Assembly (NCBI RefSeq): GCF_038446525.1
Contig: NZ_CP151792.1
Location: 1,302,001 to 1,366,000 of the forward strand
Source of the DNA: Methanolobus sp. ZRKC5
GTDB lineage: Archaea > Halobacteriota > Methanosarcinia > Methanosarcinales > Methanosarcinaceae
Reading direction: 5' to 3'
DNA: 64,000 bases
A model generated the notes under the pieces. It had not been told where the DNA came from, ran no database searches, and was given only the letters and a program-made list of their open reading frames with translations. Of this stretch, positions 6,183 through 54,013 are shown in pieces (position 1 is the first letter of the stretch; every line of letters starts with the position of its first letter). Position numbers and translations under genes: made by a program.

Positions 6183-6983
6183 TTATGGAAAAACCCTACT
6201 TACAAGGCATTCTTTCAGAAGAGAGAACCTGTCCACAATACCTATGAGTTTCTTGTCTTCAGTGACACATATACGACCAACATCATAGTGAAGGAGGGTT
6301 TCGATGGCTTTGGATACCGTTGTACTGGAACTAATCGAATAAAGTGGGGTCGACATCAGTTTTTCCACTTTAGGAGCGTCTCCTGATCCGCTATCGTGAA
6401 AATCATTTGAACGGTTACCTGTTCTGGCAAATCCAGCTTTTATGATATCGCTCCTGGATATCATCCCCATGACCTCGTCATTGTGGGATATCACAGGTAT
6501 GCCCGTATAATCCCATTCCAGCATATTGCCCCATATCTTGGAAATACTGTCATCAGGATATGCGGTCTTTACCTTTTTGTTCATAATTTCCCCTACCTCT
6601 TTTGGTGGGAGTTTTGTGAGACGGACCTGATTCAGGAGGTTCGTATCGCTCACTATGCCTGCAATTGTTTTGTCCGTTGATGATCTTAGTACCGGAGCAC
6701 GGTGTTGCTGTGCATCAACAAGCGCTTTTGCCACGTCCCGTAGTTCCATATCAGGAAGTATCAATGGGAACTCACGTGCATAACCACCAACTGTTACTTC
6801 AGATTTGTTTGAGTGCAGACGCAGAATGTCCTGATCATCCAGCATCCCTACTACAGTGCTTTTATCATCCAGCACAGGAAGACCATGAAGGAAATTCTCA
6901 CGCAATAGTTTTCTGGCATGTGTCATCAGATCATTTTCTTTTATACATACCAGATTTGTAGTCATTATGTCCCCAACTATCAT
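6183..6983 (-). CDS. Protein with four CBS domains
   Basis: The 266 residues are made of two Bateman modules: CBS1 starts at IMTTNLVCIKEND (residue 6), CBS2 at VGGYAREFPLILPD (about 65), CBS3 at IMNKKVKTAYPDDS (about 130) and CBS4 at LMSTPLYSISSSTT (about 208). Each pair forms a pocket that binds adenine nucleotides or SAM in the family and senses energy state. There is no attached enzyme domain or HTH, so it is a stand-alone sensor. A second CBS protein of similar length lies at 22.6 kb. Confidence 0.88.
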   Translation of the reverse strand: MIVGDIMTTNLVCIKENDLMTHARKLLRENFLHGLPVLDDKSTVVGMLDDQDILRLHSNKSEVTVGGYAREFPLILPDMELRDVAKALVDAQQHRAPVLRSSTDKTIAGIVSDTNLLNQVRLTKLPPKEVGEIMNKKVKTAYPDDSISKIWGNMLEWDYTGIPVISHNDEVMGMISRSDIIKAGFARTGNRSNDFHDSGSGDAPKVEKLMSTPLYSISSSTTVSKAIETLLHYDVGRICVTEDKKLIGIVDRFSLLKECLVSRVFP

Positions 6984-8123: not shown

Positions 8124-8317
8124 GTAACTATTCAGCCTGATAAAAACGCTATCAATAACAATCTTGACAAAAAGTTGAAACGTAAATTTCATTAGGATCA
8201 TTTATTTTGATTGTTGCTATTGATTGCTTTTTTGATTGTTAGATTGTTAGTGAGCAGACATCTCTATTTCGATGAAATCAGTATCAATAGGCAAATCGTG
8301 CCAGGCTGAATAGTTAC
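8124..8317 (+). mobile_element. 194-bp MITE, copy 1
   Basis: The element has 16-base perfect terminal inverted repeats (GTAACTATTCAGCCTG and its complement) and is flanked by an exact 8-bp duplication AAATGAAG (8116-8123 and 8318-8325). It encodes no protein. It sits 25 bases upstream of the start of the carbonic anhydrase-like gene, where it must replace or lengthen the promoter/leader. Two further copies of exactly 194 bp lie at 9855 and 51292. GTAA ends with 8-bp duplications are the pattern of the IS66 family, so an IS66-type transposase may mobilise it in trans (inference). Confidence 0.93.
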
Positions 8318-8345
8318 AAATGAAGAAGAAATATTCGTAATGAAA

Positions 8346-8477
8346 TTAGCTTTGACCATCTGATTTTTTAGCTTCATCCTTTTTTTCATCCGTATTCTCT
8401 TCCCTTTCACCAAAATCAATTACCAGATGATTGCATCTGCCACTTTTTGCTCCGCATATTTTACAATATCTTACCAT
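8346..8477 (-). CDS. 43-residue zinc-ribbon-like small protein
   Basis: An ATG at 8477 is preceded by a good ribosome site (GAGAGGAG, about six bases upstream). The protein starts MVRYCKICGAKSGRCNHLVI, giving C-x2-C...C-x-H, four potential zinc ligands, and continues into a charged Glu/Lys tail that looks disordered. The size, ribosome site and cysteine pattern support a real gene. It is caught between MITE copy 1 and the IS630 element. Function unknown; nucleic acid or protein binding is a guess. Confidence 0.6.
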   Translation of the reverse strand: MVRYCKICGAKSGRCNHLVIDFGEREENTDEKKDEAKKSDGQS

Positions 8478-8632
8478 GGTATTCTCCTCTCTATACAATT
8501 ATGTCATGTTTCTAAAAGAACTATGCGGCTGTTGAGAATGGCAAGTTTTTCGAATTCTTGCTGGACAATTAGTATTCTTATTCAGAATGGAAGAAAATAG
8601 GTTTCTACGAAGGTACTTTGCATTTATAGTTA

Positions 8633-9190
8633 CTAACTTAACATTTTTAACTTATCATCCAGAAATGTCTCAATCCATTTTCTTGCGAAGCTAATCTTTG
8701 ATGAACAATCAATAAACGCCTCAGCAATCAGATTTTTCATATGATCCAGATCTTTCACAAAATTGCGAGAAATAATTCTTTTGACACTTTTCCAGATGAA
8801 TTCGATTGGATTCAAGTCGGGTGAATATGGAGGTAAATAGACCAATTCAATATCATTTGCCTGTGCAAATTCCACTGTATATTTTGCTCGATGTGATCTA
8901 AAATTGTCGAGAATAATTACGATTCTCTCTCCCATGTTATTGTTTTTAACAGCTGATAAAAACGAACATACATCCTCCTTGGTTGAATGTTCTTTGAAAT
9001 CAATAACAGAATTACCATTCAATGCATAAAAACCGAAGGAGTTTGCTTTTATCCTGGTTGTGTTTTTGAAGATGGCAGGTTTATTGAAAGACCATAAACG
9101 AACCGTATTTGATGTTGTTTGGGGAGATGATTCATCAAGAAATCCGATAACGCAATCATCATCGATTAACGGTAAGTTTTTTTTAAACAA
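8633..9190 (-). CDS. IS630 transposase, C-terminal frame (DDE)
   Basis: This frame supplies the RNase H-like catalytic domain. The three acidic residues are visible: Asp in CVIGFLDESS, Asp in VIILDNFRSH and Glu in DLNPIEFIWKS. The frame overlaps the HTH frame by 25 bases; its nominal TTG start is unlikely to be used, because FKKNLPLIDDD continues the upstream domain after a -1 slip on AAAAAAAA. It is the last part of the IS, ending eight bases from the left inverted repeat. Confidence 0.88.
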   Translation of the reverse strand: MFKKNLPLIDDDCVIGFLDESSPQTTSNTVRLWSFNKPAIFKNTTRIKANSFGFYALNGNSVIDFKEHSTKEDVCSFLSAVKNNNMGERIVIILDNFRSHRAKYTVEFAQANDIELVYLPPYSPDLNPIEFIWKSVKRIISRNFVKDLDHMKNLIAEAFIDCSSKISFARKWIETFLDDKLKMLS

Positions 9191-9654
9191 TCTTCTGCAT
9201 TTTGTGGTCTTCGATAATCATGCGCATATGGTTTGGCATGATGCATGCCAAACTTCTTCAAGATCACTAGTATTTGCTTAATGGTGTATTGAACCTTAAA
9301 TTCATTATAAATGAGTTCCTGAACTTCTTTTGTAGACCAATCATCTCTTTCATGTAACATGTCCCTTAGTTTTTCTTTTTGATCATCAGTGAGTTTGGAA
9401 GGACATCCTCCTGAAAACCTAGGCTTTAATCCTTCATATCCGTCTTGATTCCACCGCTCTTGCCATTGATATGCAACGGGTTTTGATATCCCTACAAGTT
9501 TAGCTGCTTCATTAACAGAAGCTCCTTCATAACGATGTTTAACAAAATATAAACGTTGTAGAACTCGTGTGTCTTTCTCTAATGACTTAATATGTTTAAG
9601 CAATTCTTCTGATGAAAGATGATGCTTTATCGGAATTTGTTTGGGTTTAGCCAT
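9166..9654 (-). CDS. IS630 transposase, N-terminal frame (HTH)
   Basis: The 162-residue frame carries the DNA-binding half of the transposase: a helix-turn-helix in the segment NEAAKLVGISKPVAYQWQERW (about residues 52-72) and a second winged-helix part ending HDYRRPQNAED. It stops soon after a run of eight A residues in the coding strand. The catalytic half lies in the -1 frame, so a full transposase needs ribosomal slippage at the A-run (about 9174-9181). This arrangement is common in IS630 elements of methanogens and bacteria. Confidence 0.88.
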   Translation of the reverse strand: MAKPKQIPIKHHLSSEELLKHIKSLEKDTRVLQRLYFVKHRYEGASVNEAAKLVGISKPVAYQWQERWNQDGYEGLKPRFSGGCPSKLTDDQKEKLRDMLHERDDWSTKEVQELIYNEFKVQYTIKQILVILKKFGMHHAKPYAHDYRRPQNAEDCLKKTYR

Positions 9655-9811
9655 ACAGTATTGTTATACTCAATTAGTATTAATAGTTTGGTTAATAACT
9701 ATATATGAAAAATAGTGCTGAATCTATTAACTCTGAATGCTATGCGAGATAAAGACCATAGATGTAGAAAGGATGTTGATTAACCAAAGAGGAAACTTGA
9801 GCTTGAATAAC

Positions 9812-9833
9812 CTGGCGAAAAAGAAGACGCCAG
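9812..9833 (+). terminator. Hairpin plus T-run
   Basis: A perfect six-base stem CTGGCG / CGCCAG with a ten-base loop is followed by TATTTTTAT, the look of an intrinsic terminator on the plus strand. No gene on that strand now precedes it, so it is probably left over from a gene lost when the IS630 element or the MITE arrived. MITE copy 2 begins 22 bases later. Confidence 0.45.
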
Positions 9834-9854
9834 TATTTTTATAAATAAAAAATG

Positions 9855-10048
9855 GTAACTATTCAGCCTGATAAAAACACTATCAATAGCAATCTTGACA
9901 AAAAGTTGAGACCTACATTTTATTAGGATCATTAATTTTGATTGTTGCCATTGATTGCTTTTTTGATTCTTAGGTTGTTAGTGAGCAGACATCTCTATTT
10001 CGATGAAATCAGTACCAATAGGCAAATCGTGCCAGGCTGAATAGTTAC
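9855..10048 (+). mobile_element. 194-bp MITE, copy 2
   Basis: The same length and 16-base perfect terminal repeats as copy 1, in the same orientation. The flanks read TAAAAAAT at 9846-9853 and 10049-10056, an 8-bp duplication, with one additional G at 9854 between the left flank and the terminal repeat. Internally it is closer to the copy at 51292 than to copy 1 (for example ACACTATCAATAGC shared with the 51-kb copy versus ACGCTATCAATAAC in copy 1). It lies just downstream of the FAS1 gene and, with copy 1, brackets the IS630 element as direct repeats. Confidence 0.92.
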
Positions 10049-11882: not shown

Positions 11883-13115
11883 ATGCAATTTAAAAATACT
11901 CATCTTCTAATGCTTTGTATTACTGCCTTTTTTGCAATGGCAGGAAGTGCTATTTTAGCACCAGTGTTGCCAGAGATGGTGACACCTCTGAATACAACAT
12001 CTCATGAAATCGGACTGTTGATATCGGTCTACACTATCTCAACAGCTATTTTCACACTGGTTATTGGACATTTCATTGACCGTGTGAACCGTAAAAGTAT
12101 ACTGGTCCCATGTCTTGTCATCTATGGCCTGATGGGACTTGTAAGTTATTTTGTCTCAGACCTACAATCACTTCTTGTCATGAGGTTCATACAGGGTATT
12201 GGCGTGGCAGGAATGATGTCTTTGACTATGCTGGTCATTGGGGATGTGTACAAAGGCCATGAAAGTGTACATGCAATGAGCAGGGTTAGTATGGCTTTTG
12301 CCATTGGAGCGGTATCTGCCCCCCTCATAGGTGGAGGACTAGCAATTTTGGGATGGAACTATCCGTTCCTTTTCTATGCACTTTCACTGCCATTCGCTTT
12401 TCTTGTAATATTTTTCCTTCCGGAAACAAAGGTTCAGAAGGAAAATGGCAGCCATAAAGGTATATTTAATGTGCTTCCAGCACTCAAGGATTTGCGAATA
12501 CTATATACGGTATTCCTGAGCTTTGCTATTTTCTTCCTATTATTTTCAGTGATTATCTACATGCCCTTTATGCTTAAGGCTGTATTTGGTTATACGGCAA
12601 AGCAAGCAGGACTTGTATTGGCATTCCAGGGACTAGCTGTTATTCTAATGGCATCCCGCGTAAAGGTCCTGGTCACTAAACATTCGATGATACAAGTGAT
12701 TGCCACTGGTTTTGCACTTGTCGGACTGGCAATACTATCTATTTCATTTGCGAATTCAATTGTCATAGTTCTTCTTTTAATGTTGCTGTTTGGAGCTGGT
12801 TATGGGCTTGCCCAAACCACAATTGATGCACAGATAATTCAGATATCCTCTTCAGAATCAAGAGGTGGGGTATTATCCATACACAACACCATGAAGTACA
12901 CTGGCCAGAGTCTTTCCCCCATAGTGTTTGGTATAGTCCTATTAAATTTTAACATTGACACGGTTTTTATGATATCAGGTTTCCTGGGGTTGCTCATTGC
13001 TCTGACAACGTATTTAATGAAGGCTATTTTTGAAAAAACATCTGATGTGCATGTAAAAAATAGAAAAACATCATTGCCGTATTCAGTCTCCCCTGAACCT
13101 TTAGATGATAGGTAG
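11883..13115 (+). CDS. MFS drug-efflux-type transporter
   Basis: The 410-residue protein has about twelve membrane helices. Motif A appears between helices 2 and 3 as GHFIDRVNRKSI (about residue 62), and helix 4 carries RFIQGIGVAGM, like motif B of drug/proton antiporters. The second half begins near residue 205 after a charged loop. Its place directly behind a MarR regulator, with shared operators, suggests a proton-driven exporter for a toxic compound; substrate unknown. The C-terminal tail is basic. Confidence 0.9.
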   Translation: MQFKNTHLLMLCITAFFAMAGSAILAPVLPEMVTPLNTTSHEIGLLISVYTISTAIFTLVIGHFIDRVNRKSILVPCLVIYGLMGLVSYFVSDLQSLLVMRFIQGIGVAGMMSLTMLVIGDVYKGHESVHAMSRVSMAFAIGAVSAPLIGGGLAILGWNYPFLFYALSLPFAFLVIFFLPETKVQKENGSHKGIFNVLPALKDLRILYTVFLSFAIFFLLFSVIIYMPFMLKAVFGYTAKQAGLVLAFQGLAVILMASRVKVLVTKHSMIQVIATGFALVGLAILSISFANSIVIVLLLMLLFGAGYGLAQTTIDAQIIQISSSESRGGVLSIHNTMKYTGQSLSPIVFGIVLLNFNIDTVFMISGFLGLLIALTTYLMKAIFEKTSDVHVKNRKTSLPYSVSPEPLDDR

Positions 13116-49613: not shown

Positions 49614-50633
49614 TCAATATTTGTGGCTCTTTGCCATCTCTACCATTGACTGGAGGTTCTCGGTTGGAGTCTTGCTCACAATACCGCATCCAGGTGCCAG
49701 CAGACCAATTCCTGCATCCAGAACCTTCTGTGACTCTTCCTTGATCTCCTCAGGTGTTCTGTTCCAGAGCATGTTAACAGGATCGAGGTTACCGACGATG
49801 ACAGCATTTTTCACATTTCCGACAGCTGTTGCAGCATCTACGTTCTGGTCAACACTGATACCGTCCACACCACATGTTTCCATGACTCCAAGACCCTGGG
49901 TTGTGTCACCACAAACGTGCAGTACTGTTGGAACATTCAGCTCACGCATAGCATCACAGACCTTCTTGTGGAAAGGTACCACGAACTTCTCGTAGAACTC
50001 ATTACCGATAAGCTGTGGACTTGCAGTTGGGTCTATGAGAACCATTGTGTCTGCACCGCTCTCTACCATCTTCTTTGCATATGCAACACTGAACTCAGTT
50101 GTGAATTCCATGAGCGCAAGACCAAATTCTTCCTTTGTCATAATAGCCATGAACCACTCGTCACCATTGATGTGCTGAGCAAGGGAGAAAGGACCGATCA
50201 TACTACCCATAATAGGGAGTTCGTCTCCATATTTGTCTGCAAGGATCTTGATAGCATCACATACGACATTAATCCTGCCGTTGTCAAGTGTGTAGCCTTT
50301 GAGCTTTTCGATGTCTTCCATACTACTTACAACGTGACCAATCACGGATGGCTGCTGTACCTCTGTACCATCTTTGATCTCACAGCCAAAGAACTCAGCT
50401 TCTGCGGTGATATCGAAAGGCACGCGTACAGCTTCAAAGCCTACTACGGTGTGACCTGCTTCGGCAAGTGTTGCCATCTTTTGAGCGTCATAGTTTGCTT
50501 CAGGCCAGGCAGCGCCACAGGCTTCCATCTGATCTACAGTTCCGGTCTGAGTTACGGATACTGCAGGCATCCTGTCAACTGACTGACCGGTTAATGCACG
50601 TGCTAATCTTTCTTTTGGTGTATATTCTGTCAT
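49614..50633 (-). CDS. mtbA: Methylcobamide:CoM methyltransferase MtbA
   Basis: The 339-residue protein of the UroD fold begins [16 protein letters not shown] and has the zinc ligands His and Cys in [11 protein letters not shown] (about residue 237) and Cys in [12 protein letters not shown] (about 314), which activate coenzyme M. It moves methyl from methylated corrinoid proteins to CoM, the entry point of methylamine methanogenesis. Its sequence resembles MtbA (methylamine type) more than MtaA (methanol type). The upstream spacing to a small gene and the broken mttC suggests it was part of a trimethylamine gene group. Confidence 0.88.
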
Positions 50634-51053: not shown

Positions 51054-51903
51054 TCAGAACATTGCACTCATTTTTGCTACTGTATCTGTTGCATTCTCTC
51101 CGTAGATATCTGCACCGATCTTGGTTGCCCAGTCCTGCGTAACAGGAGCAACGCCAACCATTGTCTTAATAGATTCGCGAATGCCTGCTTCTTTAAGCTG
51201 TTCCTCTATCTGGATCTGGCTGACCATTGTAGTAGTCATAAGAGCTGAAGAAGCTACTACATCTGCACCGACTTCTTTTGCTTTTTCAACAGTAACTATT
51301 CAGCCTACCACAATTAGCCTATTGATACTGATTTAATCAAAACGGAGATGTTTGCTCACTAACAACCTAAGAATCAAAAAAGCAATCAATGGCAACAATC
51401 AAAATTAATGATCCTAATAAAATGTAGGTCTCAACTTTTTGTCAAGATTGCTATTGATAGTGTTTTTATCAGGCTGAATAGTTACTTTCAACATAGTTTT
51501 TGATAGCAACATCTCTTCCAAGGTTAATGACCTGGAATCCAGCTATCTTGAGCATTGTTGCGACGATATCCTTTCCTATTGAGTGAATGTCTCCCTCAAT
51601 AGTACCGATGACGACCTTGCCCTTACTTTTTGTTTCTGAACCTCTCTTTTCAAGTTCAGGAGTAAGGACAGCTACACCAGCACTCATTGCTTCTGATGCT
51701 GCTATTACATGAGGAAGGAAAAGTGTACCTGCTTCAAATTGGTCCCCTACATTATTCATTGCAGCAGTGAAGCCATCATTGATGAGATCAACAGGATCAA
51801 CATCTGCATCCAGAGATTCCTGTGCAACTGCTGCAGCTAATTCACCATCAAATTCCATAATCGCTTCTTTTGCTTTCGCAATAATTTCTTCTTTTGTTAC
51901 CAT
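51054..51903 (-). pseudogene. mttC: mttC corrinoid protein gene split by a MITE
   Basis: The two coding parts, 51903-51486 (MVTKEEIIAKAKEAIMEFDG to AIKNYVE) and 51291-51054 (VEKAKEVGADVVASSA to SAMF), join perfectly when the 194-bp MITE and one copy of its 8-bp duplication are removed, giving a full corrinoid protein with EGDIHSIGKD. The N-terminal half keeps the cobalt-ligand His but loses the end of the B12 domain, so no functional product is expected. A V replaces the second G of the common MVGGAP motif (MVGVAP). It lies 33 bases downstream of mttB. Confidence 0.92.
51292..51485 (-). mobile_element. 194-bp MITE, copy 3, inside mttC
   Basis: This copy lies in inverse orientation to the other two. 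Its ends GTAACTATTCAGCCT and AGGCTGAATAGTTAC are inverted repeats (15 bases), and the flanks are a perfect 8-bp duplication TTTCAACA (51284-51291 and 51486-51493). The end at 51292 has drifted slightly inside the repeat (CTACC instead of CTGGC). The element is non-coding and adds stops to mttC in all relevant frames. Confidence 0.95.
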
Positions 51904-51936: not shown

Positions 51937-53010
51937 TTATTCTTCTGCTTCCTTTTCATCAACTTTTGCAACGACTGCCTTCATCTCTTTGAGAATATCA
52001 GCATCAATTGGCTTGACCTGATGATTCTCCAGTATGTCTGTTACTTTTTCATGTGCCACAGTTGCAAGGTCCTTAGAACCTGCTCTTTCCCAGTCTCCAG
52101 ACATCTGCCTGTTAATAAGATCAGGATGTGAAGGTAGATTGATATTTTTCATCGTGCTTTTGTGAGCAAGGAAGTGACCACCAAATCCTGTATCCTTGAT
52201 CGCATCATATGCGAGTGTGTCTTCTGTAATAGGAACACCGTTCCTGGATTTCATGATCATGCTTATGAAATCATTATCCATCACAAGCTGTTCAAGTGAA
52301 AAGGTCATACCGAGCTCAAGCATACCTGCACCATATATTACGCTGGCACCTGCATACGCAGGGATCATAGCAGTAATGGTTTTCTCATGCCCAGCCTGAG
52401 CATCAGGTATCTTGGCATCTCCCTACGAGCCTGCAACGATACATGGAAGATTATAGTACTGCGCCAGCTTTGCAGCTCCTGCGCTTATAACTCCAAGTTC
52501 CGGAGATCCAACAGGTGCTGATCCACCTTTTATGTCAAAAGTAGTTGTGGAACTGCCATAGAAAGTAGGATGTCCTGGCTTGAAAAGCTGGGTTAGAACC
52601 ACACCAGCGAGGACTTCAGCATTATGAGTTACAAGTGTTCCTGCCAGATGTACAGGTGATGATGCTGCACTCATTGCCATACTCAGAACCATCATTGGCA
52701 TACCATGCTTAGTAGCCTGGAGCGCCATTTCACAAATTACAAAATCCAGCTCAAGAGGACTTGTAGGACATCCACCCAGTGTGAACAAAGGTTTATTGAG
52801 AGCTGCTGCTTCGTCTCCGCCATAGAATGCCTTGGTCAACTCAAAATAATCTGGTACTTTGTCAAACTCCGGGTCCAGAAGAAGGTGTTTTGAAGTATTC
52901 TCCATAAGTGTAATTACTTCATGCATTGTCCTGGAAACCGGTTCACCAGCCAGATCCATTGCAGAGACAGGAGAACAAAGGAAACTGATGTTAGATGCCC
53001 AGTCTGCGAT
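51937..53010 (-). pseudogene. mttB: Trimethylamine methyltransferase mttB, 5'-deleted, with amber codon
   Basis: The remaining frame codes for the C-terminal two thirds of MttB: ADWASNISFLCSPVSAMDLAG, GGCPTSPLELDFVICEMALQ, AGTLVTHNAEVLAGVVL, KGGSAPVGSPELGVI and LPCIVAGS (each the start of a longer block). It then meets TAG at 52425-52423 and continues [15 protein letters not shown] to the normal end ([11 protein letters not shown]). The amber stands exactly where MttB proteins carry pyrrolysine. About 150 N-terminal residues are missing: homology ends at about 53010 and the frame hits a stop just beyond. No start codon or ribosome site remains, so it is a pseudogene despite the intact pyrrolysine context. 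Confidence 0.92.
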
Positions 53011-53019
53011 GGAAATGTT

Positions 53020-53184
53020 CTACGACCAATGATAATATCAATGGATAATTTTTTGCTGTTAGGGTTTTTCAAGCATAATGGGATCTACGGAAACAAAGAG
53101 CTGATGAGCTATGACAAAAAAGCTATTGACTGGGGTAGAGAGTTGTGTCAGCATTACATAAACATTTCAGAACCTGTTCAGTAG
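53020..53184 (+). pseudogene. Tail of a methyltransferase regulator gene
   Basis: The plus-strand frame RPMIISMDNFLLLGFF, KHNGIYGNKELMSYDKKAI and WGRELCQHYINIS aligns well with the last 50 residues of the next gene (PEIIINDGEMAIIFF, NQNGKYDYREL, WGSELFEYYKGIS). The rest of the gene, including the DNA-binding domain, is gone, and the frame begins right at the point where mttB homology ends on the other strand. This is a deletion joint between two divergent genes. Confidence 0.85.
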
Positions 53185-53206: not shown

Positions 53207-54013
53207 ATGGAAACGTCGATAATTGATTCATTAATGCTATCTGAAAAAAGAAGAGACATAATGATCCTGCTGTCCATTGAATCAAAATCTCGTGATGAAA
53301 TGGCAGAAGCTCTTGATATGCCCTGGCAATTACTAAAACAGCCAATTAAAGAATTAAAAAATGTAGGGATGATCTTTCAAAAAGAAAATGTGTATAGCTT
53401 ATCAAATAACGGTCGACTGATGATAACTGCTTTGATGCCCTTATTGACAATGGTAGATGCATTCTCATCTGATATTGACTATTGGAAAAGCAGGGATTTG
53501 CAACCAATACCTCACCACCTCACAAAAAGAATGGGAGAGCTTGGAAAATCCAGCCTGAACACACTTTCACTAGACTACATGTTCGAACCACTCAAGCATT
53601 TTATAGAAAATGCAACTCAAACCAGATATTTGAATATTGTTCTTTCCCTTTTCGATCCGGAAGCCCCTTCACTTCTTAAGGAAATTGCCGACAAGGATAT
53701 TGAAATATCACTGGTGTTTGAACGCAATACTTATGGTAAGATGAATGAGAATTTCAGGGATGAGCTTGATGAGCTTAATAACTATAAAAACATCAGTTTT
53801 TACTGCATAGATTCCGAGGTCAATCCTCCCGAAATAATCATCAATGATGGTGAAATGGCTATTATATTCTTCAATCAGAATGGCAAATACGACTATAGAG
53901 AACTGCTCAGTTCCGATGAAAATGCTATTGCGTGGGGAAGCGAGCTTTTCGAATATTACAAAGGTATCTCAAAGCCTTGTTCGAAAAATAATGCTATTAC
54001 ACCTAAACCGTGA
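53207..54013 (+). CDS. HTH regulator of methyltransferase genes (Msr-like)
   Basis: The 268-residue protein has an N-terminal winged helix (SRDEMAEALDMPWQLLKQPI, about residues 28-47) and a C-terminal domain ending in NQNGKYDYRELLSSDENAIA (about 224). This plan is that of the methanogen regulators called Msr, which control methyltransferase operons in Methanosarcina. It lies next to the mttB locus, behind the tail of a paralogue, so it probably controlled methylamine genes; its targets here may now be mtbA and the intact corrinoid gene. Confidence 0.82.
   Translation: METSIIDSLMLSEKRRDIMILLSIESKSRDEMAEALDMPWQLLKQPIKELKNVGMIFQKENVYSLSNNGRLMITALMPLLTMVDAFSSDIDYWKSRDLQPIPHHLTKRMGELGKSSLNTLSLDYMFEPLKHFIENATQTRYLNIVLSLFDPEAPSLLKEIADKDIEISLVFERNTYGKMNENFRDELDELNNYKNISFYCIDSEVNPPEIIINDGEMAIIFFNQNGKYDYRELLSSDENAIAWGSELFEYYKGISKPCSKNNAITPKP

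What the first reader, a model, noticed from the sequence alone, without database searches (positions are those of the whole stretch)
51284..51493. MITE insertion has split mttC, with a perfect 8-bp target duplication
Seen: the 194-bp element lies between two halves of a corrinoid protein frame; TTTCAACA flanks both ends, and removing the element and one duplication restores the frame exactly (AIKNYVE to EKAKEVGAD). This documents a loss-of-function insertion in a methanogenesis gene.
Basis: seen in the sequence. Interest (0 to 1): 0.7.

Follow-up and report, generated by a model that had tools for sequence, protein, structure and literature searches.

The report
Mobile DNA split a spare gene
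A short hitch-hiking DNA element, one of more than a hundred near-identical copies in this methane-making archaeon, has broken a corrinoid protein gene, but that gene was a second, already damaged copy, so the organism probably loses nothing.

Summary
A 194-bp element (51292-51485) splits mttC, flanked by the perfect duplication TTTCAACA; leaving out the element and one repeat gives a 215-aa frame, 87% identical to and exactly as long as an intact mttC elsewhere in the genome. The element is a MITE: at least 120 copies with exact 14-nt ends in this 3.05-Mb Methanolobus genome, in two subfamilies. Its ends and 8-bp duplications match 31 intact copies of a 1,622-bp IS66-family (ISBst12-type) insertion sequence, the likely source of transposase. 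Homologues 191-197 bp long occur across Methanosarcinaceae (model hits in 55 of 111 genomes). This mttC is a spare. Its mttB has lost the N-terminus to a roughly 6.8-kb deletion that fused it to a regulator fragment; a relative keeps the whole cluster. The mttC also carries Gly-to-Val in the cobalamin-binding GG motif, found in no other of 33 proteins compared. An intact mttB(TAG)-mttC pair and pylS are elsewhere. So it is a hit on a dying accessory operon, not evidence of lost trimethylamine methanogenesis. Only 18 of 88 MITE insertions with duplications lie in restored frames, against 78% of random flank positions.

The parts
51292..51485 (+). 194-bp MITE, subfamily A (33 identical copies in the genome)
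51284..51291 (.). left 8-bp target site duplication TTTCAACA
51486..51493 (.). right 8-bp target site duplication TTTCAACA
51292..51306 (+). left terminal inverted repeat GTAACTATTCAGCCT, shared with the IS66-family element
51471..51485 (-). right terminal inverted repeat
51486..51903 (-). mttC 5' part (N-terminal 140 residues; frame then runs a few codons into the element and stops at 51469)
51054..51291 (-). mttC 3' part (C-terminal residues and stop); carries MVGV where the others have MVGG
51937..53004 (-). 5'-truncated mttB paralogue (profile positions 120-469 of 469; in-frame TAG at 52423-52425, pyrrolysine by inference)
53003..53004 (.). deletion junction: mttB homology ends at 53004, regulator homology begins at 53003
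   Evidence: against L241 6219 and 13026
53003..53184 (+). 3' remnant of a FilR1-type regulator gene
53207..54013 (+). intact FilR1-type regulator gene
49614..50633 (-). mtbA, methylcobamide:CoM methyltransferase (intact)
   Evidence: NF041608, 659.9 bits
48443..49114 (-). second corrinoid protein gene, intact frame
8124..8317 (.). further MITE copy in the window (subfamily B), duplication AAATGAAG
9855..10048 (.). further MITE copy in the window (subfamily A, 184 of 194 identical), duplication not intact

Best explanation
A non-autonomous 194-bp MITE inserted recently into an accessory mttC of a Methanolobus genome. By inference it was moved in trans by the transposase of the resident 1,622-bp IS66-family (ISBst12-type) insertion sequence, which has the same ends and the same 8-bp duplications. 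The hit gene belonged to a second methylamine operon that is dying independently: a roughly 6.8-kb deletion removed (judged from the intact cluster of a relative) a dimethylamine methyltransferase and corrinoid gene pair, two transporter-like genes, the 5' part of mttB and most of a regulator gene, and mttC gained a Gly-to-Val change in its cobalamin-binding motif. With an intact mttB-mttC pair elsewhere, the insertion is tolerated because the gene was redundant or already useless. Shown here: insertion, frame, duplication, copy number, shared ends, deletion junction, intact second pair. Inferred: trans-mobilisation, operon silence, lack of phenotype, and that decay came before the insertion.
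For: Element, ends and duplication; 33 identical copies; 120 copies with exact 14-nt ends at the set spacing; 80 of 104 with perfect duplications and 88 of 104 with at most one mismatch. IS66 partner: NF033517 312 bits and PF03050, 31 full-length copies, 1,622 bp, same ends, perfect 8-bp duplication in 23 of 28, copies differing at 0-9 positions. In the genus, genomes with strong MITE hits mostly carry the IS: of 27 genomes, 7 have a MITE hit with E below 1e-20; 5 of those 7, and 1 of the other 20, have an IS66 match over 300 bits. Decay of the operon: mttB truncated, junction and intact cluster in G005, GG to GV in 1 of 33. Redundancy: second mttB with TAG, 716 bits, and mttC, 283.7 bits, side by side; pylS 382 bits. 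Genes are rarely hit: 18 of 88 against 1375 of 1760 random positions.
Against: Movement in trans was not observed. Beyond the terminal 15-24 nt the MITE has no clear homology to the IS, so the parent could be another element with the same ends. Two MITE-bearing genus genomes (G011, G015) show no IS66 match. The order of deletion, point change and insertion is not fixed by the data. The mttC codon differences from the intact copy include more synonymous than nonsynonymous codons (45 against 29), so most of its history was under selection; the decay is recent.
Confidence: 0.88

Rival explanations
1. One reading: the insertion is a consequential loss of function in a methanogenesis gene and impairs trimethylamine use.
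For: The frame is truly split, and the motif-bearing N-terminal part is cut off from the rest of the B12-binding fold.
Against: Complete mttB-mttC pair elsewhere; the local mttB is truncated; GV in place of GG.
Confidence: 0.04
2. The MITE came first, into a working accessory operon, and the 6.8-kb deletion and the Gly-to-Val change followed under relaxed selection.
For: Nothing in the sequence dates the deletion; apart from the start truncation the mttB remnant has no stop but the TAG. In the related G005 the cluster is intact.
Against: The element is identical to 32 others, so it is young. Two independent lesions besides it make it more likely to be the latest, but not certainly.
Confidence: 0.3
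3. The two mttC parts still work as a split protein.
For: The N-terminal part keeps the helical cap and the DxHxxG motif.
Against: The break lies inside the B12-binding domain, 43 of 121 profile positions in; the C-terminal part lacks its own start near the break (first ORF start at 51239); GG is lost.
Confidence: 0.02
4. Assembly artefact.
For: High-copy repeats are where assemblies err.
Against: Unique flanks with a perfect duplication; the genome is one contig at 99.99% completeness.
Confidence: 0.01

Closest known systems
IS66 family, ISBst12 group (for example ISDge4 of Deinococcus geothermalis, PMC12898284, passages read)
   Same: Single transposase gene, about 450 aa (here 438-495 aa by the start chosen); ends GTAACTATTCAGCC here against GTGACTACTCAGCA and GTAACTGCTCAGCA there; 8-bp duplications.
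   Different: The MITE has no transposase gene and shares only the terminal 15-24 nt with the IS.
MITEs of methanogenic archaea listed in PMC3852290 (passages of the text and tables read)
   Same: Short, multi-copy, inverted repeats, partner IS in the same genome; Methanosarcina species are among the hosts.
   Different: None of the rows seen in its table of new archaeal MITEs is assigned to IS66; listed copy numbers seen are 2-34, here at least 120. The elements already known to that paper were not seen.
MITEAba12 (PMC6382973; abstract and outline seen)
   Same: A MITE spread over a whole family of organisms and caught disrupting a gene (hns).
   Different: Bacterial; proposed parent is ISAba12; there the disruption was recorded as a recent event, here it is only inferred from sequence.
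MttC, trimethylamine corrinoid protein (TIGR02370)
   Same: The joined frame is 215 aa and 87% identical to the intact paralogue.
   Different: Split by the MITE and GG to GV.

Membership tests
MITE | Short (under about 500 bp), no transposase gene, terminal inverted repeats | tested here: met
   194 bp, 15-nt perfect inverted repeats; no conserved open frame, median longest stop-free run 21-26 codons in 39 homologues
MITE | Target duplication flanking the copies | tested here: met
   80 of 104 perfect, 88 of 104 with at most one mismatch
MITE | Many copies with a full-length IS of matching ends in the genome | tested here: met
   120 exact-end copies; 31 full-length IS66 transposase matches with the same ends
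MITE | Mobilised in trans by that IS | not testable with these tools
   inferred from matching ends and duplications
MITE derived from IS66/ISBst12 by internal deletion | Interior homologous to parts of the IS | tested here: not met
   blastn finds only the terminal 15-24 nt and chance-level matches
IS66 family, ISBst12 group (the 1,622-bp partner) | IS66 DDE transposase | tested here: met
   NF033517 312.4 bits, cut-off 180; PF03050 170.5 bits
IS66 family, ISBst12 group (the 1,622-bp partner) | Single gene, ends starting GTAAC, 8-bp duplication | tested here: met
   one long frame; ends and perfect duplication in 23 of 28 copies of 1,622 bp; group features from PMC12898284
MttC (TIGR02370 corrinoid protein) | Score over the family cut-off (215.3 bits) | tested here: not met
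   parts score 176 and 98.4 bits apart; the joined frame was not scanned, but is 87% identical to a copy scoring 283.7
MttC (TIGR02370 corrinoid protein) | Cobalamin motif DxHxxG ... GG (motif name recalled) | tested here: not met
   DIHSIG kept, GG is GV; GG in the 32 others of 33
Conserved structured RNA | Covarying internal helices | tested here: not met
   18-sequence alignments: on one strand only the inverted-repeat stem, 0 compensatory pairs; on the other two weak extra stems (2 and 4 pairs), with 2 pairs showing double changes; the only Rfam match is far below its gathering score

The most novel reading that the evidence does not exclude
The 194-bp element is not a decayed IS66 but an old, separately evolving parasite of IS66/ISBst12 transposases that has persisted across the Methanosarcinaceae with its length held near 191-197 bp while its sequence drifted to as little as 53% identity, suggesting that length itself is selected for transposition.
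Probability: 0.3. Interest if true: 0.55.

Novelty: new member of a known kind. Interest (0 to 1): 0.35.

Why it matters
It corrects a tempting reading: a split methanogenesis gene does not mean lost methanogenesis when a spare copy exists. It also gives a clean, recently amplified archaeal MITE-IS66 pair (at least 120 MITEs, 31 intact IS copies), with relatives through a whole family of methanogens, useful for studying how IS66 elements and their parasites move, and as a source of gene disruptions and inversions in Methanolobus.

Tried and rejected
RNA or riboswitch-like function of the element: a single-sequence fold looked strong (z -5.6 and -4.6), but that is mostly the inverted repeats and a hairpin of this copy; 18 divergent copies show no conserved internal helix of note, and Rfam gives nothing over its gathering score. 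Rejected.

Conserved internal motif or small protein in the element: the best interior 10-column window is no better than shuffled columns (876 of 2000 shuffles reach it) and no frame stays open. Rejected.

Deletion derivative of the resident IS66: interior not homologous. Not supported, though an extinct parent cannot be excluded.

Element on plasmids or phages: no match in either collection. A paper search for the end sequence found none, and so did Methanolobus with MITE; other searches listed no paper on this element as far as titles and abstract starts show. Subscription papers and ISfinder were not searched, so it may be catalogued there.

Window mttC as an orthologue of the G005 mttC: the tree puts it beside the own intact mttC with support 93/88, not starred, while its mttB neighbour matches G005 best (81% against 58-63% for the other TAG-bearing mttB copies). 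Gene conversion is possible; not pursued.

Length constancy as evidence of selection: the divergent homologues were found with a model of that length and only the best were read (39 elements), so the range 191-197 is biased; L339 (no end pair) and L340 (215 bp) were left out of that count.

Limits of the counts: one search listed 100 of its 120 places; with other loci 104 elements were in hand, so at least 16 were not examined. Of the 104, 88 with at most one mismatch in the duplication entered the gene test; 16 were dropped. Two of the 18 hits are in one histidine kinase gene, and several lie near frame ends or in doubtful frames. Searches scored only a limited number of candidates a genome, so copy numbers there are lower bounds. 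The host species was not identified; Methanolobus is inferred from the nearest named mttC records.

Full report
What was checked. The sequence at 51284-51493 is as described: TTTCAACA, a 194-bp element with perfect inverted ends, TTTCAACA. On the minus strand the frame starts at 51903, and in the present sequence stops at 51469, inside the element. Leaving out the element and one duplication gives a single 215-aa frame. The intact mttC in the same genome is 215 aa and 87% identical, and none of the 32 other corrinoid proteins compared is interrupted there.

What the element is. The genome (one contig, 3,053,834 bases) holds 33 copies identical to it over all 194 bases, and 120 elements that have both exact 14-nt ends at the set spacing; all 100 listed are 194 bp. 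In 104 elements examined, 40 belong to its subfamily A and 64 to a second subfamily B, about 90% identical to A. Eighty of the 104 have a perfect 8-bp duplication and eight more have one mismatch. The duplications are AT-rich.

What moves it. The same end sequence occurs 324 times in the genome (160 on one strand, 164 on the other), so more than the MITEs carry it. It also bounds a 1,622-bp insertion sequence with one transposase gene of the IS66 family. There are 31 full-length matches; 28 read out as exactly 1,622 bp, 23 of them with a perfect 8-bp duplication, differing from each other at 0-9 positions. The ends and duplication length agree with the ISBst12 group as described for ISDge4 (PMC12898284, passages). 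Mobilisation in trans is inferred from this. The interior of the MITE is not a piece of this IS.

How wide it is. A 194-base search in 60 genomes (own and relatives) found matches in 13. A sequence-only model of 18 copies matched 55 of 111 Methanosarcinaceae genomes. Thirty-nine homologues read from end to end are 191-197 bp, pairwise identity 53% at least and 68% at the median; many have 8-bp duplications too. This range is biased by how they were found. No RNA structure or open frame is conserved inside.

What was hit. The gene that follows the truncated mttB is a corrinoid protein gene of the mttC type. But the mttB before it is cut: only profile positions 120-469 of 469 remain, with one in-frame TAG. 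In an unnamed Methanolobus genome, G005, the best relative of this mttB (81%) is full length and sits in a cluster that encodes a dimethylamine-type corrinoid protein and methyltransferase, two transporter-like proteins, mttB, mttC, and two divergently placed FilR1-type regulators. Aligned to that cluster, the window jumps at 53003-53004 from position 6219 to position 13026. So about 6.8 kb, including the 5' part of mttB and most of the first regulator gene, has been lost here (size measured in G005). It is a deletion in the window's lineage, because both genes at the junction are truncated.

Further damage. In the cobalamin-binding motif the window's mttC reads MVGV; the other 32 of 33 proteins have GG. 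Its end branch in the tree is longer than that of the intact paralogue (0.12 against 0.044). Compared with the intact copy, 45 codons differ synonymously and 29 not, so loss of constraint is recent.

Redundancy. The genome has one other mttB, complete, with its TAG (716 bits), directly followed by an intact mttC (283.7 bits), and a pylS gene (382 bits). mtbA, 0.4 kb downstream of the split gene, is intact. Loss of trimethylamine use is therefore not to be expected.

How it most likely came about. An accessory methylamine operon lost its head to a deletion and began to decay; a MITE from a recent burst then landed in mttC and was tolerated. The burst mostly spares genes: 18 of 88 insertions lie in a restored frame of at least 120 aa, against 1375 of 1760 random positions in the same flanks. 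That pattern fits selection against, or avoidance of, insertions in useful genes, and AT-rich targeting can contribute. The order of the three lesions is inferred, not shown.

Novelty. A MITE with an IS partner is a known kind of thing. In the passages read of a survey of 30 archaeal genomes, the table of new MITEs shows none assigned to IS66 (PMC3852290), and my paper searches found no description of this element, but ISfinder and subscription papers were out of reach. I file it as a new member of a known kind, with modest interest.

Noticed in passing
G000:C1:728871-729064 and 739011-739204 (L279, L280): Two inverted B copies carry swapped duplications (AAAGAAAG/CTTGATTT and CTTTCTTT/AAATCAAG), as expected if recombination between them inverted the 10 kb in between.
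   Followed up: partly
G000:C1 at 256463, 1073963, 1591381, 1736129, 2539306, 2908282: Six of nine end-to-start neighbours (MITE or IS) in the loci in hand are exactly 7 bp apart, as if insertion prefers the end of an existing element, one base off the 8-bp duplication. Unexplained.
   Followed up: partly
L046 1501-1896; L003 1094-1906: MITEs nested in or stacked on other MITEs.
   Followed up: no
L033 1501-3014 and L191 96-2868: One IS66 copy carries an IS5-family transposase gene inside it (2,773 bp in all).
   Followed up: no
window 51937-53004 and L241 5152-6612; also L242 821-1876, L243 4717-5772: Divergent TAG-containing mttB types only 58-63% identical to the common Methanolobus mttB; the window/G005 type was found in 2 of 27 genus genomes. 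Substrate unknown; could be another methylated amine.
   Followed up: partly
window 51054-51903: The split mttC is closest to the intact mttC of its own genome although its mttB neighbour is an old separate type, which may mean gene conversion.
   Followed up: no
G000:C1:749836 and 751204: Two MITEs of different subfamilies lie in one histidine kinase-like gene (gene named by eye).
   Followed up: no
window 8124-10048: Two more MITE copies flank what looks like a transposase gene in two frames (8633-9190 and 9166-9654; identified by eye only).
   Followed up: no
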